From Verrucomicrobiia bacterium (GTDB lineage Bacteria; Verrucomicrobiota; Verrucomicrobiia; Limisphaerales; Fontisphaeraceae), in contig JAOAIT010000009.1 of NCBI GenBank assembly GCA_026414565.1, forward strand, positions 186,001 through 250,000: 64,000 nucleotides of DNA, in the 5' to 3' direction. A program made the translations under genes and the position numbers. The notes below the pieces were generated by a model. That model saw nothing but the letters and a program-made list of their open reading frames with translations, was not told the DNA's origin and did not search any database. Positions 46,584-59,423 of this stretch are shown here, piece after piece (within the stretch, counting starts at the first letter, position 1; every line of letters starts with the position of its first letter).

Positions 46584-48065
46584 TTATCGCAGCCAGCGCA
46601 GCAGCCAGTCGGGGAAGCAGCCCAGCAACAGCACGGCGAGGCCCAGGATTGCCACTACGCCATGGGTAAGCGGGGCGCGCAGAGGAGCCGCAGATTCGAC
46701 TGGGTCTGCGCGATAAGCATGCTTGAGCACGATCAGGTAGTAGTAGAGCGAGACGGCGCTCATCCCAATCGCCAGAATGACCAGATACAGCAGCCCCGGA
46801 ACAGGCCGCCCCCCCGCGCCCGGATCATCCCGCAGCACCTCGAGGAAGACATAGAACTTGCCGAAGAAACCGGCCAGGGGCGGGATGCCGGCCAGTGAGA
46901 GCAGGAAAATTAACAGTGCCCCGGCCAAAAGCGGCGAGCGCCGCGCCAGTCCGTTGAAGTGGTTAAGGTCGGAGCCGCCGGTTTGCCGCTCCACCGCGGC
47001 AATGACGCCAAATGCTCCCACAATGGCCAGACCGTAGGTGATGACGTAATAGGCCAGCGCGGTTTCCTGTTGCACCAGAATGGCGAGCACGGCATAGCCG
47101 CTGTGGGCGATTGCGCTGTACGCCAGCAGCCGGCGCACGTTGCGCTGGACCAGCGCCGCCAGATTTCCCAGGACCATCGAAAGCGCTGCCAACAGGGCGA
47201 ACAGCGGCTTCCAACCGGCGGCAAATTGGCCCCAATGGGCGTTGCCACTGACCCCGGCAAACACGGAGAGCACCACGGCATTCAGCACCAGAAAGCTCGC
47301 CACCTTGGAGCCTGATGCAATCAGGGCGGCGCTGGGTGCCGGCGCGCCCTGATAGGCATCGGGCGCCCACAAGTGAAACGGCACTGCGGCAATTTTGAAG
47401 GCCAGACCGCCGAGCACCAGGGCCATGGCCAGGGCCATGATGGGGTCCAGGGGCAGCGGGCCGCGGGGGATCTTGCCGGGAATCTCCTGGAAATAATACT
47501 CCCCGGACAAACCAAACAGCAGACTCAAGCCAAACAGCAGACAGGCCGCCGCCATGCTGCCATACAGGAAATATTTGAGGCCAGCCTCGGCGCTGCGGGG
47601 ATGGCGTTTGTCGAGCGCGGTCAGAAGATAGAGGCTCAGGCTGGACAGCTCGAGGGCGACAAAGAGCAGCAGCAGGTTGTTGGCGCTGACGAGCAGCATG
47701 AAGCCCAGGGTGGCGAAAAGTAGCAGGGCAAAATACTCTCCGGCATGGGGGGTGAAATCCGTCTCCGCCGCCAACAGCACCACGGCCAGGGTAAGCACCA
47801 GCAGCGCCAGCTTATAATGTTGGATTTGGAGAGAGATTCCCAATAACGGCACCCTTTCATTTGCGGAAGGCGGCCAGCCAATCACCGCCACGGCGGCGAA
47901 GGCACATCCCAATGCGGTCAACAAACCGGTCAGTCTCATCCGCCAGGATACGGAACGGTCGCGGCCCCAGCGTAAATCCGCCAAGAGCACGCCCAGCGCC
48001 GTGAGCACTAGCACCGCCTCGGGCCGGAGGGCCTTCAACACGTCGAGATAGGCAATGTCGCTCAT
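46584..48065 (-). CDS. nuoN: NADH-quinone oxidoreductase subunit N
   Basis: A 493-residue antiporter-like membrane subunit of complex I, the pump closest to the NuoH/A/J/K part. About 14 hydrophobic segments are present. The conserved lysine-bearing segment LGGLAFKIAAVPFHLWAPDAYQGAP and the ASGSKVASF stretch are typical of NuoN, and ALELSSLSLYLLTAL carries the helix-5 Glu. It is the last gene of the nuo operon, and its start overlaps the nuoM stop by ATGA, a sign of translational coupling. Confidence 0.96.
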   Translation of the reverse strand: MSDIAYLDVLKALRPEAVLVLTALGVLLADLRWGRDRSVSWRMRLTGLLTALGCAFAAVAVIGWPPSANERVPLLGISLQIQHYKLALLVLTLAVVLLAAETDFTPHAGEYFALLLFATLGFMLLVSANNLLLLFVALELSSLSLYLLTALDKRHPRSAEAGLKYFLYGSMAAACLLFGLSLLFGLSGEYYFQEIPGKIPRGPLPLDPIMALAMALVLGGLAFKIAAVPFHLWAPDAYQGAPAPSAALIASGSKVASFLVLNAVVLSVFAGVSGNAHWGQFAAGWKPLFALLAALSMVLGNLAALVQRNVRRLLAYSAIAHSGYAVLAILVQQETALAYYVITYGLAIVGAFGVIAAVERQTGGSDLNHFNGLARRSPLLAGALLIFLLSLAGIPPLAGFFGKFYVFLEVLRDDPGAGGRPVPGLLYLVILAIGMSAVSLYYYLIVLKHAYRADPVESAAPLRAPLTHGVVAILGLAVLLLGCFPDWLLRWLR

Positions 48066-49576
48066 GGCGTCACCACCTTTCTAAGCCCGTCAAATAGCGG
48101 GCTGTTGAATGCCGGAATAATCCAGTCCAGCAACAACCGGGGGTACAACCCCACCGCCAGCGTGCAAAGGATGAGCAGCAGCGCCCCCATCTTTTCCGGC
48201 CACGTGATGGGCGGCAACGGCTCGCCGCGCAGTGCCGCGGGTACGGGCCGATCGCTAAAAAATGCTTTGTGCAGGGCGCGCCACGTGTAGGCCACGCCGA
48301 TGATGACGCCCGCCCCCGCCAACAGCATCAGCCTTGGAAAGGCCTGCCACGCGCCCAGGAGCACCTGCAACTCGGCCACAAAACCGCTGAAGCCCGGCAG
48401 GCCCATTGAGGCCGCCCCGGCAATCACAAAAGTGACCGCCGCGAAGGGCAGCGCCCGCGCCAGTTGCAGACCCTCCAGGGTGTCCAGCTCGCGCGTGTGC
48501 GCCCGGTCATAGACCATCCGGCCCACCACACCGAAGAGCAGCCCGGCAATCACGCCATGGGAGAACATTTGCAGCACCGCGCCATGTAATCCGATGGATG
48601 TCAGGGTTGCCAGCCCCAGCATTACAAAGCCCATGTGGCTGACACTGGAGTAGCCAATGACAAACTTGAAATCATTTTGCGCCAGCGCCGCCAGCGCGCC
48701 ATAGACGATCCCAATGACCGCCAGCCATGCCAGCAGCATCTGCCAGTGCACCAGCCCCTGGGGGAAAAGTGCCATGGCAACCCGCAAGGCGCCATAGGCT
48801 CCCAGTTTCATAATCACCCCGGCCAGCAACATCGAAGCCGCAGTGGGCGCGGCCACGTGGCCGGTCGGCGCCCACGAATGAAACGGCCAGAGACCCGCCA
48901 GAATGGCAAAGCCGATGTACATCAGTGGAAACACCCAGAGCTGAAAGGATGCCGGGAACTCCAGCCGGCTCAGCGTGAGCAGATCGAAGGAACGCGGCGC
49001 CGCCGCCGTCAGAGGGGCTTGGCTGCCGCTCATTACATACGTGGCCAGCAAGGCAATGAGCACCATCGCGCTGCCCACGAAGGAATACAGCGCCAGTTTC
49101 ATCGCGCCATATTCCTTGCGCGTCGAGCCCCACAGCGCGATGAGGAAGTACTTGGGCACAATGGCCAGTTCGTAAAAAACAAACAACAGGAACAAGTCCA
49201 CGCTGAGAAACACCCCATACACCCCCCCAATCAGGGCCAGGTAAAAGGCGAAGTACTCCCGGGCGCGATGTTCAATGTTCCACGAGAACAACACGCCCGC
49301 CACGGCGGCAACGCCGGTGAGCAGCACCATCACCACCGTGATGCCGTCCGCCGCCAGATGAAATCGGATGCCCAGCCATTCGATCCAGGGGACATTGACC
49401 AGCGTGAGCATGCCGTTCAGAGGATGGACCTGCTGTGCCCCGGCCAGCCCCAACAACAGCCCTCCCACGGAGACGGCCAGCGCGACGAGGCGCGCCCACG
49501 CCCCCGCTGCCCGCCCTGGCAGCAGGAGCACGAGCAACAGCCCGGCAAAAGTCAGATATAACGGCCAGTGCAGCAT
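48062..49576 (-). CDS. nuoM: NADH-quinone oxidoreductase subunit M, second copy (NuoM2)
   Basis: A 504-residue antiporter-like subunit. Glu136 lies in FYELAIVPKYFLI, and Lys257 in GVIMKLGAYG matches the Lys of helix 8 in NuoM. The helix-7 Lys seen in the neighbouring copy (FAIKTPILPFH) is replaced: the aligned stretch here is FAILAGLWPFHSW, with Leu226 in its place. WPFHSWAPTGHVAAPTAASMLLAG marks a distinct NuoM branch. It lies 2 bp after the first nuoM and overlaps nuoN by 4 bases. The presence of two nuoM genes makes this a '2M'-type complex I. Confidence 0.93.
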   Translation of the reverse strand: MLHWPLYLTFAGLLLVLLLPGRAAGAWARLVALAVSVGGLLLGLAGAQQVHPLNGMLTLVNVPWIEWLGIRFHLAADGITVVMVLLTGVAAVAGVLFSWNIEHRAREYFAFYLALIGGVYGVFLSVDLFLLFVFYELAIVPKYFLIALWGSTRKEYGAMKLALYSFVGSAMVLIALLATYVMSGSQAPLTAAAPRSFDLLTLSRLEFPASFQLWVFPLMYIGFAILAGLWPFHSWAPTGHVAAPTAASMLLAGVIMKLGAYGALRVAMALFPQGLVHWQMLLAWLAVIGIVYGALAALAQNDFKFVIGYSSVSHMGFVMLGLATLTSIGLHGAVLQMFSHGVIAGLLFGVVGRMVYDRAHTRELDTLEGLQLARALPFAAVTFVIAGAASMGLPGFSGFVAELQVLLGAWQAFPRLMLLAGAGVIIGVAYTWRALHKAFFSDRPVPAALRGEPLPPITWPEKMGALLLILCTLAVGLYPRLLLDWIIPAFNSPLFDGLRKVVTP

Positions 49577-49578
49577 GG

Positions 49579-51126
49579 TCAGGTCTGGAGATGCGCCGCC
49601 AGGCGCAGGACGGTTTCGTTGATCAAATTGATGACCGGCGCCGGCCAGACTCCCAACAGCAGCATGAGGGCCGCGGCCGGCACGAAGCGCAAACGCTCGG
49701 CGGGCGTCAGCTCCGCCAGGTTTTCCCAGGCCGGATTCAGCGGGCCGTGAAAGATCCGCTGTATGACCGTCAGAATGACCACCGCCGTGGCCAGCAGGCC
49801 GAAGGTGGAGATCGCCGCCGCCCAGGGCGCCAGCCCAAACACGCCTTTAAACACCAGAAATTCTCCCACAAATCCATTCAACCCCGGCAGCCCCAGCGAG
49901 GCAAACCACGCCACCCCCGTCAGCCCCGTATAAACCGGCACCACCCGGCGCAGGCCGCCAAAATCTTCCACCCCCCGGCGGCCGCCGCTGCGCTGCTCCA
50001 ACCAGCCGACGGCGGCAAACAGGGTGGCGGCGGTGATGCCGTGATTGAACATTTGCAGCAGCACACCGTTGAGGGCGGCGGCCTGGTGGGCGGCCCCGGC
50101 GGCGGAGCTTGTCGCCGCTGCCACCATGCCAAGCACGCAGTAACCCAAATGATTGATGGACGAGTAACCAAGCAGTCGTTTGAGGTCTCGTTGGGCAAAG
50201 GCTGTAAAAGCGGAAATCACCACCGTCGCCACGGCCAGCCCCAGCAGCAGCCCGCTTAAGGCCCGGACTTCGTGCGGAAAAATGGGCAGCGCCAGCCGCA
50301 GCAGACCATAGACGCCGAGCTTGGACATCACGCCGGTGAGCAACATGGCCGTGCTCGTGGGCGCTTCCGCATACGCGGCGGGCAGCCACGTGTGAAAAGG
50401 CAGGATGGGCGTCTTGATGGCGAAGCCCAGAAACACCCCGCCAAAAAGGAGCAACATGACAGAACGCGGGGCCCAGTCGCCGAGGGGCAGATTCATCGCC
50501 ACCAGCGCGTAAAGCTCCCCGCTGCGCCCCAGCCGCGCCAGCTCCGGGAAGTCAAATTGTCCGCTGGCGCGATACAACCCCAGCATGGCCAGCAGCAGCG
50601 TTACGCTACCTACCATGGTATAAACAAAGAACTGCATCGCCGCCGGCCCGCGCCCCGCTCCGCCCCACAGTTTGATGAGGAAAAAGGCGGGGATGAGTGT
50701 CAGTTCCCAGAACAGGAACCAGTGAAAGAAATTCAGGGCGGTAAATGCCCCCAGCAAGCCGGTCTCCAGCAGCAACATCAATGCGAAGTAGGGCGCGGCC
50801 TTGTCCTTGATCTCTTGCGCGGCGAGGATTGCCACCGGCGTGACCAGGGCGGTGAGCAGCAGCATCAGCAGGCTCAAGCCGTCGGCACCTACATAATAAT
50901 GCACCCCCAGCGAAGGCACCCACGCCTGACGCTCAACTAATTGGAGGCCGCCCTGCATGGGATCAAAGCGGTTCCAGAGCAGCAGGGCTTCTGCCAGCAC
51001 GGCCAGCGCGGCGAGCATGGCCAAATGCCGTGCCCGCCGTGCGCAACTGCGCCCCGCCAGCAGCACCAGCGCCGCCCCCACCAGGGGGGTGAGCGTCAGC
51101 ACGGTCAAATTGAGCCACGATTCCAT
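49579..51126 (-). CDS. nuoM: NADH-quinone oxidoreductase subunit M, first copy (NuoM1)
   Basis: A 515-residue antiporter-like subunit from the ATG at 51126 (MESWLNLTVL). The open frame extends 5 codons further to 51141, overlapping nuoL. Glu141 lies in FWELTLIPAFFLI, Lys238 in GFAIKTPILPFHTWLP and Lys269 in MSKLGVYGLLR: the full set of pump residues known for NuoM. FNHGITAATLFAAVGWLEQRSG is the helix-12 region with His. This copy is the more standard NuoM. It is followed by the second nuoM after a 2-bp gap and lies 5 bp after nuoL. Confidence 0.95.
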   Translation of the reverse strand: MESWLNLTVLTLTPLVGAALVLLAGRSCARRARHLAMLAALAVLAEALLLWNRFDPMQGGLQLVERQAWVPSLGVHYYVGADGLSLLMLLLTALVTPVAILAAQEIKDKAAPYFALMLLLETGLLGAFTALNFFHWFLFWELTLIPAFFLIKLWGGAGRGPAAMQFFVYTMVGSVTLLLAMLGLYRASGQFDFPELARLGRSGELYALVAMNLPLGDWAPRSVMLLLFGGVFLGFAIKTPILPFHTWLPAAYAEAPTSTAMLLTGVMSKLGVYGLLRLALPIFPHEVRALSGLLLGLAVATVVISAFTAFAQRDLKRLLGYSSINHLGYCVLGMVAAATSSAAGAAHQAAALNGVLLQMFNHGITAATLFAAVGWLEQRSGGRRGVEDFGGLRRVVPVYTGLTGVAWFASLGLPGLNGFVGEFLVFKGVFGLAPWAAAISTFGLLATAVVILTVIQRIFHGPLNPAWENLAELTPAERLRFVPAAALMLLLGVWPAPVINLINETVLRLAAHLQT

Positions 51127-51131
51127 GCGCC

Positions 51132-53177
51132 TTAACCCCACGCCAGATATAGCACCAGCGCCACCAGACCCGCGCCCAGCGCGCGCAACCAGAGCTGAAC
51201 CCGGCCGCTTTGCGCGCGCGACAACCCCCCGCCTGTCCGGCGGAGGCTGTGGCAGCCTGCGTCAAACCCGCCATTCACCACGTATTCATCGGTGAGCCGG
51301 GCCAGCCACGCAAAACCTTGAGCCATCAACCCCATGAGCGCGACCATGGCCCCCCAGAGCCAGCGATCCAGCACGTCCCCCAGGCGGGCCAGCCAGGCAT
51401 TCCAGCGGATGACCGTGGTCTCGTACAACTCATCGAAATAAAACTTGGCGCGCAATGCATGAAACACGGCCGGCTGCCAGCGCTCCAAAGGGTCTGGCTC
51501 TTCCGGTGTCTGGCGGGGGACCCGGCCGTAAATCAACCAGCCGGCGGTCAAGCCCCCCAGGGCCGCCACGGTGGATGCCGCCATAACGCCCAGAGTGCCG
51601 CCCTGCCAGAGGCGTGCCCAATCCACCAGCGGCGCACGGCCTTCCCAGTAATCGCGTAACCACGGCCAGGCTGGCGTGCCCAGAAAGCCCAGCCCCACCG
51701 CCCCAAAGGCCAGCACCACCAGCGGACCCAGCATGACGGCGGGACTTTCATGCGGAGCCTTCAGGGGATTAAGCAAAGGGCCTCGATAGCTGCCCAAAAA
51801 GACCAGCACCGTTTGGCGGGTCATGTAAAAAGCGGTCAGCACCGCCGCCGTCAGCGCCAGATAAAAAGGCCCCTGCGAAACCGGCCAGCCGTGGGCGGCA
51901 TGCAGGATTTCGTCCTTGCTCCAAAAGCCGCTGAAAAACACGGGGAACCCCGCCAGTGCCAGCATCCCCACGGCATAGGTGGTAAAAGTCCACGGCATGA
52001 AACGCCGCAGGCCGCCCAGATGGCGGATGTCCTGCTCGTGATGACAGCCATGAATGACCGAACCGGCCCCCAAAAACAACAGCGCCTTGAAGAAGGCATG
52101 GGTGATGAGATGAAACATGCCCACCGCCACGCCGCCCGTGCCCAGGCCCAGCATCATAAAGCCCAGTTGCGACACGGTGGAATAGGCCAGAATGCGCTTG
52201 ATGTCCGTCTGGGCCACCGCCACCAGCGCGGCAAATAAAGCCGTGGCCGCCCCTGTCCAGGCCACCACTTTCAGCGCCGGCGTAATCCCGGCAACCCCGT
52301 CCGGCAGGGCGGAAAATACCGGGTACATCCGCGCCACCAGGAACACGCCTGCCGCCACCATTGTCGCCGCGTGAATCAGGGCGCTCACCGGCGTGGGGCC
52401 TTCCATGGCGTCTGGAAGCCACACGTGCAACGGCAACTGGCCGGACTTGCCCACCGCGCCGCAGAAGATCAGCAAGGCCAGTGCGGTGCTCAGGCTCATG
52501 CCGCTGGCCACGGTTACGGCCGTCAGCCGGGCCAGGACGGCATGCTCCAGACAGCCTGCGCCGTCATCATAAAACAACAGCGTGCCGGTCTCGCAATAGA
52601 GCCAGAGCAATCCCAGCAGGAAACCGAGGTCGCCGATGCGTGTAGTGATGAACGCTTTTTTGGCGGCGGCCGCCGCAGAGGGCTTGTGAAACCAGAAGCC
52701 GATTAATAAATACGAGGTCAATCCCACCAGCTCCCAGCACACGAACAACAGCAGCAGGCTGTTGGCAATCACCACCCCCAGCATGGCCGCAGCAAAGAGC
52801 GAGAGGAAACAGAAGAAGCGGGTGAAGTTGGGATCCTGGGCCATGTAGCCCACGCTGAAGATAAAAATCAGCAGCCCCACCAGCGACACCATCAGCGCCA
52901 TGCCGGCGGAGAGCGGATGCAGCACCCAGCCCAGCCGCAGGGCCTCATCACCCACCACAAACCAGGTGAAATTGACATATTGGCGGTACTCGCCATCCAC
53001 CCCGCCCTGCAGAGTGGTTGCAAAGGCCCAAACGGACAGCGTCAGTGCCCCGCTTAGCGCTCCGATGGCCAGCGTTGCCGCCAGGCCGCGGCGCTCCCGG
53101 CGCAACAGGGCAGTCAGCCCCGCCGCCACCAGCGGCAGGAGCGGTATCAGATAGAGGTGTTGGGCAATCCAATTCAT
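51132..53177 (-). CDS. nuoL: NADH-quinone oxidoreductase subunit L, with long C-terminal lateral helix region
   Basis: A 681-residue distal pump subunit. Standard features: ICWELVG-like CWELVGLTSYLLIGFW, GKSGQLPLHVWLPDAMEGPTP with the pump Lys, and ALIHAATMVAAGVFLVARM. The C-terminal part from DELYE (about 582) to SGRVQ (about 661) is the lateral-helix region. It spans roughly 76-80 residues, against about 47 in the E. coli protein as I remember it. An extension of this size fits a helix that must run along one more antiporter-like subunit, consistent with the two NuoM copies. The start overlaps nuoK by ATGA. Confidence 0.96.
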   Translation of the reverse strand: MNWIAQHLYLIPLLPLVAAGLTALLRRERRGLAATLAIGALSGALTLSVWAFATTLQGGVDGEYRQYVNFTWFVVGDEALRLGWVLHPLSAGMALMVSLVGLLIFIFSVGYMAQDPNFTRFFCFLSLFAAAMLGVVIANSLLLLFVCWELVGLTSYLLIGFWFHKPSAAAAAKKAFITTRIGDLGFLLGLLWLYCETGTLLFYDDGAGCLEHAVLARLTAVTVASGMSLSTALALLIFCGAVGKSGQLPLHVWLPDAMEGPTPVSALIHAATMVAAGVFLVARMYPVFSALPDGVAGITPALKVVAWTGAATALFAALVAVAQTDIKRILAYSTVSQLGFMMLGLGTGGVAVGMFHLITHAFFKALLFLGAGSVIHGCHHEQDIRHLGGLRRFMPWTFTTYAVGMLALAGFPVFFSGFWSKDEILHAAHGWPVSQGPFYLALTAAVLTAFYMTRQTVLVFLGSYRGPLLNPLKAPHESPAVMLGPLVVLAFGAVGLGFLGTPAWPWLRDYWEGRAPLVDWARLWQGGTLGVMAASTVAALGGLTAGWLIYGRVPRQTPEEPDPLERWQPAVFHALRAKFYFDELYETTVIRWNAWLARLGDVLDRWLWGAMVALMGLMAQGFAWLARLTDEYVVNGGFDAGCHSLRRTGGGLSRAQSGRVQLWLRALGAGLVALVLYLAWG

Positions 53178-53485
53178 CCGCGCAGCGTGCTCACCTGGTC
53201 CAGGTCCGTGGTTTTGAAATGGCGATAAACCAGAATGATCAGCGCCAACCCCACCCCGGCTTCGGCGGCGGCAATGGCCATGGAAAACAGCACCAACAAA
53301 ATGCCCCCGATTTGGTGTTCCGGGACATGGTGGCGGGCAAAGGCCAGAAAGCTCAAGTTGGCGGCATTGAGCATCAACTCAATGCCCATCAGCATGATGA
53401 TGGCATTGCGGCGCAACACCGCCCCGGCAAACCCGATGGCGAACAGGGCGGCAGCGATCATCAGATAGGGATGCAGGGGATTCAT
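53174..53485 (-). CDS. nuoK: NADH-quinone oxidoreductase subunit K
   Basis: A 103-residue membrane protein with three helices. The two key glutamates for proton transfer are present: Glu36 in MGIELMLNAANLSF and Glu75 in IAAAEAGVGLALIIL. The length is normal for NuoK. The start overlaps the nuoJ stop by ATGA and the stop overlaps the nuoL start, so nuoJ, nuoK and nuoL form a tightly coupled block. Confidence 0.96.
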   Translation of the reverse strand: MNPLHPYLMIAAALFAIGFAGAVLRRNAIIMLMGIELMLNAANLSFLAFARHHVPEHQIGGILLVLFSMAIAAAEAGVGLALIILVYRHFKTTDLDQVSTLRG

Positions 53486-54000
53486 CGCGGGGGAGGTTTG
53501 GTTTCCGGTGGCTCCTTGACCGCCAGCAGGAGGGCGCCCACCAGCGCCGCGGTGAGCAGCAACCCCATGGCCAGCAACGGCACCACCGCGAGCATCATGG
53601 TCTGGCCGAGTTCTGCCACCGTCGGCTCGGTCATGGCCGCAGGCACAGGCTGCGTACCGGGCAGGAGATGCGAGCCGCCCATGCCGCCCACCAACACCGC
53701 CAGGACGCCGAGGGTGACCATCCCGCCCGCCAGCACCCCTTTTTTAGATAACGGCGGCTCCTGGGGATTCCCTCCCCGGGTGAGCAGGATGGCAAACACG
53801 ATCACAATGGACACCGCGCCGACATACACCAGGATTTGCGCAAAGCCGACAAATTGCGCCTGCAGGTCGAGGAAGCAGCCAGCCAGCCCCAGGAAAGTCA
53901 GCGCCAGCGCCAGCGCGCAATGGACCAAATTCCGCATCGTCATGGCCGCCGTGGCGCCCACGATCACCAGGAGGCCGAGGAGGTAGGGGGTTATGCTCAT
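53482..54000 (-). CDS. nuoJ: NADH-quinone oxidoreductase subunit J
   Basis: A 172-residue membrane subunit from the ATG at 54000 (MSITPYLLGLLVIVG); the frame stays open to 54027, where MAFGIFPPV is less like a NuoJ start. The typical NuoJ helix-3 segment is present: FVGFAQILVYVGAVSIVIVFAILL with the Tyr and Gly kink of the π-bulge (quoted in parts: AQILVYVGAVSIVIVF). Five helices are expected and seen. It is separated from nuoH by about 104 bp, the largest gap but one in the operon, and no gene was seen in the gap. Confidence 0.94.
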   Translation of the reverse strand: MSITPYLLGLLVIVGATAAMTMRNLVHCALALALTFLGLAGCFLDLQAQFVGFAQILVYVGAVSIVIVFAILLTRGGNPQEPPLSKKGVLAGGMVTLGVLAVLVGGMGGSHLLPGTQPVPAAMTEPTVAELGQTMMLAVVPLLAMGLLLTAALVGALLLAVKEPPETKPPPR

Positions 54001-54104
54001 AACGGGTGGAAAAATTCCAAAGGCCACGCCCCCGGCCTCCCTCCAGCAAGGGATTGCAGCATCCGGCGTTTGTTATTTGTTTGTTCCGTCATCAAATCTT
54101 TTCC

Positions 54105-55292
54105 TTATTCCGCATACCGATATTCCCGTTTGCCCCAGCCCCGCCGGGCGCTCAAGCCGCGTCCCAGTCCCCACCACGCCGCCAGCAGGAGACCGCCGCC
54201 CACCACCCATTGCACCAGACCGCCCCACCACCCCTCGCCCGGCAGAAATCGGCACAAGCCGGCCACCACGAGGTTGACCAGCGCCAGCGGCAGCAGAAAC
54301 TTCCAGGCAAAACTCATGAGTTGATCCATGCGCAATCGCGGCAGCGTGCCCCGCACCCAGATAAACAGCGCAATGAGCGCCAGCAGCTTGGTGAAAAACC
54401 AAAACCACGAGGGCAGCCCCGTCAGCCACGGCAACGGCGCGTGCCATCCCCCCAGAAACAAGGTGATGGCCAGCCCGCTGACGGCGAACATTCCGAGATA
54501 TTCGCCAAGGAAAAACAAGGCGAACTTGAAGCCGCTGTACTCCACGAAATAGCCGGCCACCAGCTCCGACTCGCCCTCCGGCAAATCAAACGGCGAGCGG
54601 TTGCTTTCTGCCGTGGCGGCAATCAGGAACAGGATAAAGCCTGCCAGGCCCCACGGCGTGAACACATGCCAGTTGGGAATCCAGCCCCAATACCCCGCCT
54701 GGGCTTCCACCAGTTGCGTGGTGGAGAGCGTGCCCGCCATCATCAGCACCGGCACGGCAGCCAGCACCAGCGGGATTTCATAGCTGAGCATCTGGGCGAT
54801 GGCCCGCAAAGCCCCCAGGAGCGAGTACTTGTTGCTGCTTGCCCACCCGGCCAGGAAGGGGGCAAGCTCCGTGGCCGCGCCCGCGGCGAAAAAAAACAGC
54901 ACCGCTGCATCCAGATCAATAGCCACCATGTTGCGCCCCATCGGCAACACCGAATAGGCCAGCAGCACGGGCGCCACCAACACGAACGGGGCGAGAAAAT
55001 GCAGCACCCGGTCCGCGCCCGCCGGCACAATGTCCTCCTTGATGAGCGCCTTGATGCCATCCGCCGCGAATTGCAAAAAGCCCGCCGGCCCCACCCGGTT
55101 GGGACCGCGCCGGTTCTGGATGCGTCCCAGTCCTTTGCGTTCGAGCACTGTCACCAGAGCGAACAGCAGGCCGAACACCGCAATGATGGCGGCAATATTG
55201 ATCAGCATCGAGGCCAGCGGTTGCAACGCCGGAGGCGCCAGCTCCACCAAGCGGTGCTTCAGTTGCACGAAAATCTGGTCCAGCGAATTCAT
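54105..55292 (-). CDS. nuoH: NADH-quinone oxidoreductase subunit H
   Basis: A 395-residue membrane subunit that forms the quinone chamber next to NuoB and NuoD. Signature segments: RKGLGRIQNRRGPNRVGPAG at the first loop, LADGIK-like AADGIKALIKED, and PFDLPEGESELVAGYFVEYSGFKFALFFLGEY (in parts: FDLPEGESELVAGY, SGFKFALFFLGEY), with the acidic residues of the E-channel. Length is on the long side owing to the N-terminus and C-terminal tail. In this operon nuoH follows nuoI, the reverse of the common H-I order. Confidence 0.96.
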   Translation of the reverse strand: MNSLDQIFVQLKHRLVELAPPALQPLASMLINIAAIIAVFGLLFALVTVLERKGLGRIQNRRGPNRVGPAGFLQFAADGIKALIKEDIVPAGADRVLHFLAPFVLVAPVLLAYSVLPMGRNMVAIDLDAAVLFFFAAGAATELAPFLAGWASSNKYSLLGALRAIAQMLSYEIPLVLAAVPVLMMAGTLSTTQLVEAQAGYWGWIPNWHVFTPWGLAGFILFLIAATAESNRSPFDLPEGESELVAGYFVEYSGFKFALFFLGEYLGMFAVSGLAITLFLGGWHAPLPWLTGLPSWFWFFTKLLALIALFIWVRGTLPRLRMDQLMSFAWKFLLPLALVNLVVAGLCRFLPGEGWWGGLVQWVVGGGLLLAAWWGLGRGLSARRGWGKREYRYAE

Positions 55293-55456
55293 GGTGCATC
55301 AATGCCCTTGCCCCACGGCTTACGGGCGGGGAAGGGGCGGCCGTCCCCCATCCTCCTCAAAATGGTTGCAGGCTCCGGTGAATTTCTCCTCCTGGCGGGC
55401 AGTGGTTTCCGTTCTGTAGCCTTGAATCTGTCCATGCGTTTTCCCAAAGTTCAGCC

Positions 55457-56068
55457 TCAGGCTCCCTCGCCTTTCCCCGGCTCATAAGTTTCCGTGGCCT
55501 TGGCCACTTTGGCCGCCATTTCTTTGGCCTTGGCTTCGGCCTTGGCGCGCTCCATGGCCATGCGCGCGTCGGTCTCGGCCGCCTCGGTGGGATGAATCCG
55601 TTGGTAGTAACTGTTCGGTTTGGCCAGGTCTTCCTTGTGCAGCAGCAGGCGCCCGAAACGATCGCCGGTGCTCAGCTCAAAGGCCACGTCCATCTTGATG
55701 GCGTCAAAGGGGCATACCTCCACGCAAATCTGGCAGCCCATGCACACCGAGATGTCAATGTCGAAAATCTTGGGCTGCATTTGCAGCTTGCCGGTGTGAT
55801 CCCGCTTCTTGTTGGTATCTTTGACGATGTAAATGCACTGCGGGGGACATTCCTTCTCGCAAATCTGGCAGGCCACACAGCGCAACCCGGCGGCGGCATC
55901 CTCCCCGTCATACACCAGGAAGGGAAACGTGCGGGCATTCTCAACTTGCGGGAGGCGCTCCTCGGGGTATTCCACCGTCACCAGGCGGGCGGGATTGGTG
56001 TAACTGCCCACAAAATTGCGGGCCGTCACCATCATGCCCTTGAGTATGCCTGTGCCCAGCATGTCCAC
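55457..56068 (-). CDS. nuoI: NADH-quinone oxidoreductase subunit I
   Basis: A 203-residue ferredoxin-like subunit with two 4Fe-4S motifs carrying clusters N6a and N6b: Cys64, 67, 70 and 74 (CVACQICEKEC), with the extra Cys78, and Cys109, 112, 115 and 119 (CMGCQICVEVC). The N-terminal amphipathic helix GILKGMMVTARNFVG fits its membrane-facing position. The C-terminal tail (about 165-203) is a charged Ala/Lys/Glu-rich helix, longer than in many NuoI. It is encoded between nuoD and nuoH; a 164-bp gap to nuoH shows nothing recognisable. Confidence 0.96.
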   Translation of the reverse strand: MDMLGTGILKGMMVTARNFVGSYTNPARLVTVEYPEERLPQVENARTFPFLVYDGEDAAAGLRCVACQICEKECPPQCIYIVKDTNKKRDHTGKLQMQPKIFDIDISVCMGCQICVEVCPFDAIKMDVAFELSTGDRFGRLLLHKEDLAKPNSYYQRIHPTEAAETDARMAMERAKAEAKAKEMAAKVAKATETYEPGKGEGA

Positions 56069-56089
56069 CGTGAGTTGTGCGCTTTTGTT

Positions 56090-57301
56090 TTACCTGTCCA
56101 CCTCGCCCAAGACAATATCCACGCTGCCCAGAATGATGACCACATCGGCCACCTTGTGCCCCAGACACATGTCTTCCAGCACCGTCAAATTGATGAAGCT
56201 GGGCGGCCGCACCCGGTAACGATAGGGATTGGGACCGCCGTCGCTGATAAGATAAAAGCCCAACTCGCCCTTGGGGGCCTCGATGCGCCCGTAGGCTTCG
56301 CCGGGTTTGGGCCGGAATCCGCGTAACTTGGCCTTCGGATCCATCACCGGCCCGGCGGGGATGTCCCGCAACGCCTGCTCCAGAATCCGGACCGATTCCC
56401 GCATTTCCAGCAGCCGCACCATGTACCGGTCATACACGTCGCCGTGCGCGCCCAGCGGGACGCGGAACTGGAAACGCTCATAGATCCCATACTTGTCCAC
56501 CTTGCGCAGGTCATAATTCACCCCGCTGGCGCGAAGCATCGGGCCGGTGATGCCGGCGTTGACGGCCAGCGCAGGCGGCAGCACGCCCACCCCCTGCGTG
56601 CGGGCCATGAGAATTTCATTCTCGGTGAACAACGTTTCGTATTCGTCCAGAAAACGCGGATACTCCGCCACCACTTTTTTCACGCGGTCCAGCCACCCGG
56701 GCGGGGCATCGCAGCGGCAGCCGCCAAAGCGCATGTAGTTACACATCATCCGCGCGCCGGTCAGTTCCTCAAACAAATCCAGAATCTTCTCCCGTTCGCG
56801 AAAGGCATACATCAACGGCGTGCCCAGCGCGCCCATGTCCTGCACCAGAAAGCCGATCAAACACGTGTGGTTTTGCAGACGGGTCAGCTCGGCGGTGATG
56901 ACCCGCAAATATTCCGCCCGCTCCGGCGGCTGCAGGCCGGCCAGTTTTTCGACCGCCAGCGCGTAGGCCCAGTTGTTGGTCAGACTGCAAAAGTAGTCCA
57001 GCCGGTCCGTATAGGGCATGGAGCCGAGATAACTGGTGTTCTCTGCTATTTTTTCATGGTTTCGGTGCAGATAACCGAACACCGGTTTGAGTTTCACCAC
57101 CGTCTCTCCCTCCAGCACCACATCCATGCGGAAGACGCCGTGCGTGGAAGGATGATGCGGCCCCATGGCTACTTCCAAGCGGTCCGTCTCCAGTTCCCAC
57201 CGGCCATGCTCCATGCCTTCGCCGGGCGATGGGCCGATGGGCTGGAGTAGGCCCGTGGGGTTGGGGGCAGCTTGTGGCGGGGAGGTCATCGGTGAGTTCA
57301 T
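56090..57301 (-). CDS. nuoD: NADH-quinone oxidoreductase subunit D
   Basis: A 403-residue 49-kDa-type subunit, related to [NiFe] hydrogenase large subunits, that forms the quinone site with Nuo[16 protein letters not shown] holds the conserved His residues of the quinone pocket. [22 protein letters not shown] and [24 protein letters not shown] are characteristic, and the end [14 protein letters not shown] is the usual NuoD end. The N-terminus has an extra 35-40 residues rich in Pro before [10 protein letters not shown]. The start overlaps nuoC by ATGA. Confidence 0.97.
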
Positions 57302-57951
57302 GCCTGCCTCCCTTGTTGGCCGGCGCCTGCTGCGGGATAATGCCGCCGGGCTTTTTCCAGCACCTGGTCATGCGGCGTGGGCTCGTATTCGTAGTCGTCC
57401 GGCTCCACGTAATCCCGCCGCATGGGGTGCCCTTCGAAGCCTTCCCACATCAGGATGCGGCGCAAATCCGGATGGCCTTCAAAAAACACGCCAAACAGGT
57501 CATACACCTCCCGCTCCTGCAACTCGCAGGAGCGCCAGATGGGCGTGAGCGAAGCCACCCTGGCCCCCTCCCGGCGGTCTGCCGTGCGCTGGCGCAACAC
57601 CAGCGGCCCATGCCGCAGCTCCATGGAAAACAAATGATAAACCACCTCCAGGAAACCCGGCTCCACCTGCTCCCGGATTTCCTCAAAAACACGCTCCACG
57701 CCCTCCACCATTTGGGTGGTGCGCACCTTCTCCTTGACCACCTTGTCCAGCCAGTCCACGCCGGTGACGTTCGAGACATAGTCGAATCGGCACGCCGGGT
57801 CATCGCGCAGAAAACGGGCGACGGCCACTGCATGGGCGGTGTCCACCAGCAGTGAGGGCTGATTGGCGGGGGAGGGGTTGGGGAGTATTTTCAACCCGGC
57901 CCCGGGTACTGCGGCCGCCAGGCGTTGCACCAATGACTCCAGTGCTTCCAT
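57298..57951 (-). CDS. nuoC: NADH-quinone oxidoreductase subunit C
   Basis: A 217-residue 30-kDa-type subunit in the peripheral arm. It has the signature [20 protein letters not shown] and [24 protein letters not shown]. The start [17 protein letters not shown] at 57951 gives a normal length and lies 3 bp after nuoB. NuoC is separate from NuoD here, not fused. It links NuoB and NuoD to the rest of the peripheral arm. Confidence 0.95.
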
Positions 57952-57954
57952 GCT

Positions 57955-58599
57955 TCAATCCTCACGGGGAAGGCTCGGTGGCTGCCATACTTCCGGGTTG
58001 AAGGGCGGCTCCAGGTCCTGCGCACCATGACGGGGCACGAGATACTCGCCCGGCACGGCACGGTTGAGCGCGGGCGCCTGTCCAGGGCCGCGCAAGGTTT
58101 GGGCGGCGATCTTCTCCTGCAACGTGATCAAGGCGTGCAATAATGCCTCCGGCCGCGGCGGGCAACCGGGAATGTGCACGTCCACCGGGATATACCGGTC
58201 AATCCCTTTAAGCACGTTGTACCCCTGCTTGAACGGCCCGCCGGAAATGGCGCAGGCGCCCATGGCAATGACATACTTCGGCTCCGGCATCTGATTGTAT
58301 AGACGCACCACCTGCGGCGCCATTTTCTTGGTCACTGTGCCGGCCACGATCATCAGATCGGCCTGCCGCGGGGAAGGGCGGAAAACCTCGGCGCCAAACC
58401 GCGCGATGTCATACCGCGCCATCGAGGCGGCAATCATTTCAATGGCGCAGCAGGCCAGCCCAAACTGGAGCGGCCACACCGAATTTTTCCGGCCCCAGTT
58501 GTAAAGCTCCGCCAGCGAGGTCAGGAAGACCCCCTGTTTGCGCAGCTCATCACGTAATCCTTCGTCCACGGCCATGGTAGATCCAACCGGCGCATTCAT
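57955..58599 (-). CDS. nuoB: NADH-quinone oxidoreductase subunit B
   Basis: A 214-residue subunit carrying the terminal 4Fe-4S cluster N2. Ligands: Cys50 and Cys51 in [10 protein letters not shown], Cys116 in [11 protein letters not shown] and Cys146 in [31 protein letters not shown] is typical. The start chosen at 58599 makes an ATGA overlap with the nuoA stop; in-frame ATGs at 58605 and 58575 are alternatives. The C-terminal tail after about 165 is longer than in E. coli and Pro-rich. Confidence 0.95.
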
Positions 58600-58970
58600 T
58601 GCCATCGCAACAAGCCTTTGGCCCAGGCCCACACCAGCCCCTCGGCCAGCAGCAGCAGAAAAATCAGCATCGCCAGGCAGGCCCCCAAGGGCAGATCTAA
58701 AAAGGCGACGGCAAAGGGCAGCAAAAACAACACCTCCACATCAAAGATGAGGAACAAGATGGCGTAGAGGTAGTATTCCACCTTGAATTGAATGGCACCC
58801 CGGCCGCGCGATTCCAGGCCGCATTCATAAATGGCTTGTTTCACCGGCCCGGGTTTGGGCGGCGAAATCCACCATGCCCAAAGTTTGGCAACCAGCAGGG
58901 GCCCGAGGCCAAAGCCGACGGCGGCCAGCAGAAAGACCACCAGAAAGGCGTATGGGTGATACTCAGTCAT
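58596..58970 (-). CDS. nuoA: NADH-quinone oxidoreductase subunit A
   Basis: A 124-residue membrane protein with three helices from the ATG at 58970 ([19 protein letters not shown]); the open frame goes to 59018, but those 16 residues do not match. The conserved loop shows [20 protein letters not shown] with the Cys and Glu near the quinone channel (in parts: [28 protein letters not shown]). It is the first gene of the twelve-gene nuo operon. Confidence 0.95.
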
Positions 58971-59423
58971 ACGGCACGTGCCACGGTGCTGGGTACAACC
59001 GTGCCAGCCGCACGCCACGGCGTCAAGCCGATGCGCCAGACCTTTGGAAAAAATTTGTTTTGTGGGCCGTAACGCCCCCGCAAAGAGAAGAAATTTGGAT
59101 CAGATATCAAGCGGTTTTATGATTTTTTCATCAGGGACTGCTTCTAGGTGAACGTGAATGGTCTTCTCGAAGTGCAATGGCCAACACGATAATTGCCAGT
59201 CGTGGCCTTGGCTTTAAAAGATTTCATCTTTTTGGCTGGGCTTCCGCAATTCACGCGGCGATGAACTACCCCTGTAGACAAGGCAAGCCAACTCAAGCGG
59301 GGACTGCCTGCAAGATTAAGACAATGAATACATTGTTTTAATATCTAACACCGGCCGGGACAAACCGGACAACGACTACTCCCACAGGAGGTGCTTGTAG
59401 GCACAGTCCCAAATTGGGACAAG
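58971..59423. other. Intergenic region upstream of nuoA; GC drop begins here
   Basis: About 450 bases without a convincing gene. On the minus strand a TTGACG at 59021-59026 is a possible -35 for nuoA, but no good -10 is found 16-18 bases further, so the nuo promoter is not settled. From about 59050 onward base composition becomes clearly richer in A and T (several lines are around 40% GC by eye, against more than 60% in nuo). The stretch ends with a perfect palindrome at 59406-59420 next to the stop of the nuclease-like gene. Confidence 0.5.
59406..59420. repeat. Perfect palindrome next to the stop of the nuclease-like gene
   Basis: GTCCCAA-A-TTGGGAC forms a perfect 7-1-7 inverted repeat, 3 bases beyond the stop on the minus strand. 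No T run follows, so it is not a clear terminator; it could be an operator-like or boundary element. Confidence 0.5.

What the first reader, a model, noticed from the sequence alone, without database searches (positions are those of the whole stretch)
48062..51126. The two NuoM copies differ at a pump lysine
Seen: NuoM1 has Glu141, Lys238 (FAIKTPILPFH) and Lys269. NuoM2 has Glu136 and Lys257, but Leu226 in place of the helix-7 Lys (FAILAGLWPFH). In NuoM this Lys is part of the proton channel. NuoM2 may use another residue, or may serve as a spacer or pump in a different way.
Basis: partly seen in the sequence, partly recalled or inferred. Interest (0 to 1): 0.6.

Follow-up and report, generated by a model that had tools for sequence, protein, structure and literature searches.

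The report
Proton-pump subunits without the helix-7 lysine
One of the two NuoM proton-pump subunits in this bacterium's enlarged respiratory complex I lacks a lysine thought essential for pumping; this is not a quirk of that subunit but an old trait of a whole NuoM lineage that also serves in ordinary complex I, so the textbook rule for this residue has natural exceptions.

Summary
NuoM2 (48062-49576, minus strand) has Leu226 where E. coli NuoM has Lys234, the TM7 lysine; NuoM1 keeps Lys238. The alignment is not shifted, and every other channel residue is present. The reading as a peculiarity of NuoM2, perhaps a spacer, is not supported. All 111 NuoM2 rows from two-M complexes in Verrucomicrobiota and Acidobacteriota share the replacement. 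So do 59 single-M NuoM, among them the organism's own second complex I and gut Bacteroidota. All form one clade, also with the key columns removed, so the lysine was lost once, long ago. NuoM1 and NuoM2 are not sister copies (AU p=0.002). The cluster otherwise fits the published 2M complex I, with 25 extra residues in the NuoL lateral helix. New here: every NuoM2 carries an invariant Lys142 on TM5, six residues after the ion-pair Glu136; single-M relatives instead carry His or Lys on TM8. In all, 181/181 Lys-less NuoM have such an extra basic residue, against 0/163 with LysTM7. I propose that NuoM2 still pumps, with the ion pair's positive charge moved to TM5. That last step is inference: positions were chosen afterwards, and E. 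coli HycC lacks LysTM7 without any substitute.

The parts
48062..49576 (-). nuoM2 (504 aa), Lys-less NuoM lineage, next to nuoN
   Evidence: TIGR01972 420 bits; Lys-less clade
48899..48901 (-). NuoM2 Leu226 codon CTG, at the site of E. coli NuoM Lys234 (LysTM7)
49151..49153 (-). NuoM2 Lys142 codon AAG on TM5, Glu136+6; invariant in and specific to NuoM2 of 2M complexes
   Evidence: 111/111 M2 rows; 0 in M1 and single-M rows
49169..49171 (-). NuoM2 Glu136 (GluTM5)
48806..48808 (-). NuoM2 Lys257 (LysTM8)
49579..51126 (-). nuoM1 (515 aa), keeps Glu141, Lys238 (LysTM7) and Lys269
   Evidence: TIGR01972 463 bits
51132..53177 (-). nuoL (681 aa) with lengthened lateral helix HL
   Evidence: PRK06590; HL span 76 aa in 2M against 51 in single-M relatives
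51207..51434 (-). NuoL lateral helix region (aa 582-657) containing the ~25-aa insertion
46584..48065 (-). nuoN
   Evidence: TIGR01770
53174..59018 (-). rest of the cluster: nuoK, J, H, I, D, C, B, A; no nuoE/F/G adjacent

Best explanation
NuoM2 is a working antiporter-like subunit of a 2M-type complex I (three usual pumps plus one extra NuoM). It belongs to a NuoM lineage in which the TM7 lysine was lost once, before the 2M complex of Verrucomicrobiota and Acidobacteriota arose. The 2M complex joins one NuoM of a Lys-bearing lineage (M1, gene next to nuoL) with one of the Lys-less lineage (M2, gene next to nuoN). Shown: the replacement, its conservation, the single clade, the intact remaining channel residues, and the invariant Lys142 on TM5. 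Inferred: M2 still takes up a proton through LysTM8 and passes it to GluTM12, while the positive partner of GluTM5, which gates that transfer in ordinary NuoM, is supplied from a different place: Lys142 on TM5 in M2, His/Lys on TM8 in the single-M relatives.
For: Leu or Met at the LysTM7 site in 111/111 M2, 51/51 and 8/8 single-M NuoM; Lys in 115/115 M1 and 39/39 other single-M NuoM. The Lys-less rows are one clade: SH-aLRT 96 in the large tree, 99.9 with TM5, TM7 and TM8 columns removed. M1+M2 as sisters rejected, AU p 0.0023. GluTM5, LysTM8, His322, His348 and GluTM12 kept. Lys142: 111/111 M2, none in the other NuoM types. All 181 Lys-less rows have K/H at one of four positions (E. coli 150, 259, 263, 264), 0 of 163 Lys-bearing rows do. 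NuoL HL is 25 aa longer. A 2M cluster of Acidobacterium capsulatum is transcribed (PMC11636273).
Against: The four positions were picked after seeing the data and stand for only about three or four lineages. NuoM1 also has lineage-private basic residues (H138, K/R155), so private basic residues arise without loss of LysTM7. E. coli HycC has Leu at this site (PMC5061711) and none of the four substitutes. No side-chain geometry was available to show that Lys142 can reach Glu136. Lys142 is six residues from Glu136, not on the same helix face by simple helix geometry, though the conserved Pro141 should kink TM5.
Confidence: 0.55

Rival explanations
1. NuoM2 pumps without any substitute: the Glu-Lys pair is dispensable in this lineage, GluTM5 cycling alone or with water and the neighbouring NuoN TM12 residue.
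For: HycC of formate hydrogenlyase has Leu at the site, none of the four candidate basics, and a nearly identical local sequence (FGLLAGIIPLH against FAILAGLWPFH).
Against: In E. coli and P. denitrificans NuoM the pair (E144/K234; E141/K232) is essential (PMC5061711, PMC9802314). Every Lys-less NuoM examined has an extra basic residue on TM5 or TM8. FHL is not shown to need proton transfer through HycC: 18 substitutions there had no effect.
Confidence: 0.22
2. NuoM2 is a non-pumping spacer or conduit that has lost its own proton channel.
For: Loss of one residue of the charge axis; an extra subunit need not pump.
Against: GluTM5, LysTM8, both linking His and GluTM12 are kept in all true M2 rows; the same Lys-less type is the only NuoM of ordinary complexes; strong conservation (71% mean column identity).
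Confidence: 0.1
3. Lys142 has nothing to do with the lost Lys; it is a contact residue peculiar to M2's place in the four-pump row (with NuoN or NuoM1), since TM5 lies at the subunit interface.
For: Lys142 is specific to M2 of 2M complexes, not shared by all Lys-less NuoM; M1 likewise has private basic residues on and after TM5 (H138, K/R155).
Against: Single-M NuoM is expected to abut NuoN with TM5 too, but never has this Lys; each Lys-less type has some extra basic residue while no Lys-bearing type has one at the same four positions.
Confidence: 0.12
4. Alignment shift, sequencing error or pseudogene.
For: None found.
Against: Conserved in 111 M2 rows from many genomes; open frame; gapless alignment; Leu226 falls at the TM7 break in the model.
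Confidence: 0.01

Closest known systems
2M complex I (Chadwick et al. 2018, ISME J; A. capsulatum in PMC11636273; Nitrospira in PMC6606698, PMC9040806; Chloroflexi in PMC7117926)
   Same: Two NuoM genes between nuoL and nuoN; NuoL lateral helix longer by about 25-26 residues; no nuoE/F/G in the cluster; M1 and M2 in separate clades.
   Different: No difference in kind seen. Not found in the papers I could read: that M2 lacks LysTM7 and carries an invariant TM5 lysine. The Chadwick paper itself was not held, so prior mention there is not excluded; Nitrospira and Chloroflexi sequences could not be reached.
Canonical NuoM/ND4/Nqo13 (E. coli, P. denitrificans, T. thermophilus)
   Same: Fold (Z 47-51), GluTM5, LysTM8, His links, GluTM12.
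   Different: LysTM7 and the following Pro (KxP) replaced by LxG in M2; Trp before GluTM5 replaced by Tyr; extra Lys on TM5.
HycC, E. coli formate hydrogenlyase
   Same: Leu at the LysTM7 site (L208), same LLAG-like motif, GluTM5 and LysTM8 kept.
   Different: A hydrogenase subunit outside the NuoM family; no extra basic residue at the four positions.
Single-M NuoM of Bacteroidota (Prevotella, Phocaeicola) and of Verrucomicrobiota/Acidobacteriota
   Same: Leu at the LysTM7 site; same clade as NuoM2.
   Different: One NuoM per complex; normal-length NuoL helix; His (and Lys) on TM8 instead of Lys on TM5.

Membership tests
2M complex I | Two NuoM genes in one complex I cluster with L and N | tested here: met
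   L-M1-M2-N at 46584-53177, kept across the order
2M complex I | Lengthened NuoL amphipathic (HL) helix | tested here: met
   76 aa in 2M against 51 in single-M relatives; published insertion 26 aa
2M complex I | Translocates a fifth proton per cycle | not testable with these tools
   Needs a purified complex
NuoM (TIGR01972) | Profile score above curated cut-off | tested here: met
   M1 463 and M2 420 bits, cut-off 264
NuoM (TIGR01972) | NuoM fold | tested here: met
   M2 model Z 50.9 to 8e9g_M, 491 residues, rmsd 1.9
Canonical proton-pumping antiporter-like subunit | GluTM5, LysTM8, Lys/GluTM12 | tested here: met
   E136, K257, E402
Canonical proton-pumping antiporter-like subunit | LysTM7 paired with GluTM5 | tested here: not met
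   Leu226 in M2; Leu or Met in all 111 M2 rows
Lys-less NuoM clade (named here) | Non-Lys at TM7 and grouping with other such NuoM independent of that site | tested here: met
   SH-aLRT 99.9 with TM5/TM7/TM8 columns removed

The most novel reading that the evidence does not exclude
The GluTM5-LysTM7 ion pair, taken as a required switch in every antiporter-like subunit, was dismantled once in a large bacterial NuoM lineage and rebuilt in at least three ways (Lys on TM5; His on TM8; His plus Lys on TM8), so the switch depends on a positive charge near GluTM5 and LysTM8, not on a lysine in TM7. In the four-pump complex a canonical and a rebuilt module work side by side.
Probability: 0.35. Interest if true: 0.68.

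Novelty: new variant of a known kind. Interest (0 to 1): 0.5.

Why it matters
Current models of complex I give LysTM7 a required role in each antiporter-like subunit (PMC10212512, PMC11496545, PMC9802314). A natural lineage that does without it, found even in gut and oral Bacteroidota, gives a direct test of which part of the pair matters. The 2M complex holds both designs in one enzyme.

Tried and rejected
Shifted lysine in helix 7 or 8: rejected by alignment and model. Recent tandem duplication of nuoM: rejected. Sequencing error: rejected by conservation. E. coli Lys173 site as the substitute: conserved as Lys in M2 but also in Lys-bearing NuoM, so not specific. The Chadwick 2018 paper is not held. 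Plasmid collection gave only a few Bacteroidota NuoM and no L71-type. Nitrospira and Chloroflexi 2M sequences could not be reached: the one genome-contig scan returned only Verrucomicrobiota- and Acidobacteriota-like loci. Atomic distances could not be measured because model coordinates are not exposed. One row labelled M2 is a hydrogenase-type subunit (L075) and was set aside.

Full report
What was checked. The window holds a complex I cluster on the minus strand, nuoA-B-C-D-I-H-J-K-L-M1-M2-N (46584-59018), without nuoE, F or G. M1 (49579-51126) and M2 (48062-49576) both pass the curated NuoM cut-off. Against E. coli NuoM, Leu226 lies opposite Lys234 without gaps; Glu144, His241, Lys265, His322, His348 and Glu407 all have their counterparts in M2. 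In an AlphaFold2 model of M2 (pLDDT 87, pTM 0.90), Leu226 ends the first half of TM7 at the helix break. The model matches solved NuoM chains over 491 residues (Z 50.9).

Is it peculiar to NuoM2? No. NuoM genes were gathered from 58 genomes of the same order, from the phylum and class, from Acidobacteriota, and from plasmid records. In the final alignment, the TM7 site is Leu or Met in 111/111 M2 of two-M clusters, Leu in 51/51 single-M NuoM of one type (L71, including this organism's own second complex I at G000:C4), and Leu in 8/8 of another (L69, including Prevotella nigrescens and Phocaeicola massiliensis). It is Lys in 115/115 M1 and in 39/39 single-M NuoM of the common type (L72). Seven of the 51 and fourteen of the 39 lie at contig or locus edges, so their single-M context is not fully seen.

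History. In a tree of 83 rows all Lys-less NuoM form one clade (SH-aLRT 96). With the TM5, TM7 and TM8 columns removed and a few rows added, support is 99.9. Holding M1 and M2 together as sisters is rejected (AU p 0.0023). So LysTM7 was most simply lost once, and the 2M complex combines two old NuoM lineages rather than a fresh duplicate. That M1 and M2 form separate clades was already reported for Chloroflexi 2M complexes (PMC7117926). Trees are the quick kind, with SH-aLRT only; the direction (loss rather than gain of Lys) rests on the NuoN outgroup, which is joined by a long branch.

Is this a 2M complex? The NuoL lateral helix between DELY and the last transmembrane helix spans 76 residues in most two-M clusters and 51 in single-M relatives, a 25-residue gain (the motif-based measure failed or scattered for some rows). 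The published 2M insertion is 26 residues (PMC9040806). An expressed 2M cluster is known in Acidobacterium capsulatum (PMC11636273).

Replacement residue. M2 Lys142, on TM5 six residues after Glu136 (motif FYE(I/L)AI(I/V)PKYF), is Lys in 111/111 M2 and in no M1 or single-M NuoM examined. The L71 type instead has His259 and Lys264 on TM8 (E. coli numbering), plus His143 before GluTM5 in 48/51; the L69 type has His259 or, once, His263. His259 is next to the equivalent of T. thermophilus Nqo13 Asp228, described as part of the N-side input channel (PMC11496545; the numbering transfer is mine). All 181 Lys-less rows have a basic residue at one of positions 150, 259, 263, 264; none of 163 Lys-bearing rows has. 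Limits: the positions were chosen after looking, they represent three or four lineages, and M1 too has private basic residues (H138, K/R155). HycC of E. coli has Leu at this site (PMC5061711) and none of the substitutes.

Mechanism proposed. Published work holds that GluTM5 and LysTM7 form an ion pair in each antiporter-like subunit that gates transfer from LysTM8 to Lys/GluTM12 (PMC10212512, PMC11496545), and that the pair is essential in P. denitrificans (PMC9802314) and E. coli (PMC5061711). M2 keeps all other elements, and its lineage serves as the only NuoM of ordinary complexes, so I judge it a working pump module whose ion-pair partner sits elsewhere: Lys142 in M2. The kept residues, clade and conservation are shown; pumping and the role of Lys142 are inferred.

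Novelty. The 2M complex is known. I found no paper among those held that reports a Lys-less NuoM clade or the TM5 lysine, but the defining 2M paper was not held, so earlier mention is possible. Leu at this site is published for HycC.

Noticed in passing
G000:C4, C18, C38, C44, C53, C65 (L071-L076): The same genome carries several further complex-I-like or group-4-hydrogenase-like clusters: a single-M Lys-less complex I (C4), a cluster with a short MrpD-like plus an L subunit and Lys-bearing M (C18, resembling 'green' complex I), and a cluster with two ~640-aa HyfB-like subunits in tandem (C44). 18 Proton_antipo_M domains in all.
   Followed up: partly
window 49579-51126 (NuoM1): NuoM1 has its own lineage-private basic residues on or after TM5 (His at E. 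coli 138, Lys/Arg at 155) and Lys/Arg five residues after GluTM12, absent from other NuoM; unexplained.
   Followed up: partly
window 54105-56068: nuoI lies before nuoH in this 2M cluster and its relatives, while most single-M clusters seen have nuoH before nuoI; possibly a marker of the 2M gene order.
   Followed up: no
L262, NuoM: A single-M Lys-less NuoM in the phylum has its TM8 His at E. coli position 263 instead of 259, one turn away.
   Followed up: no
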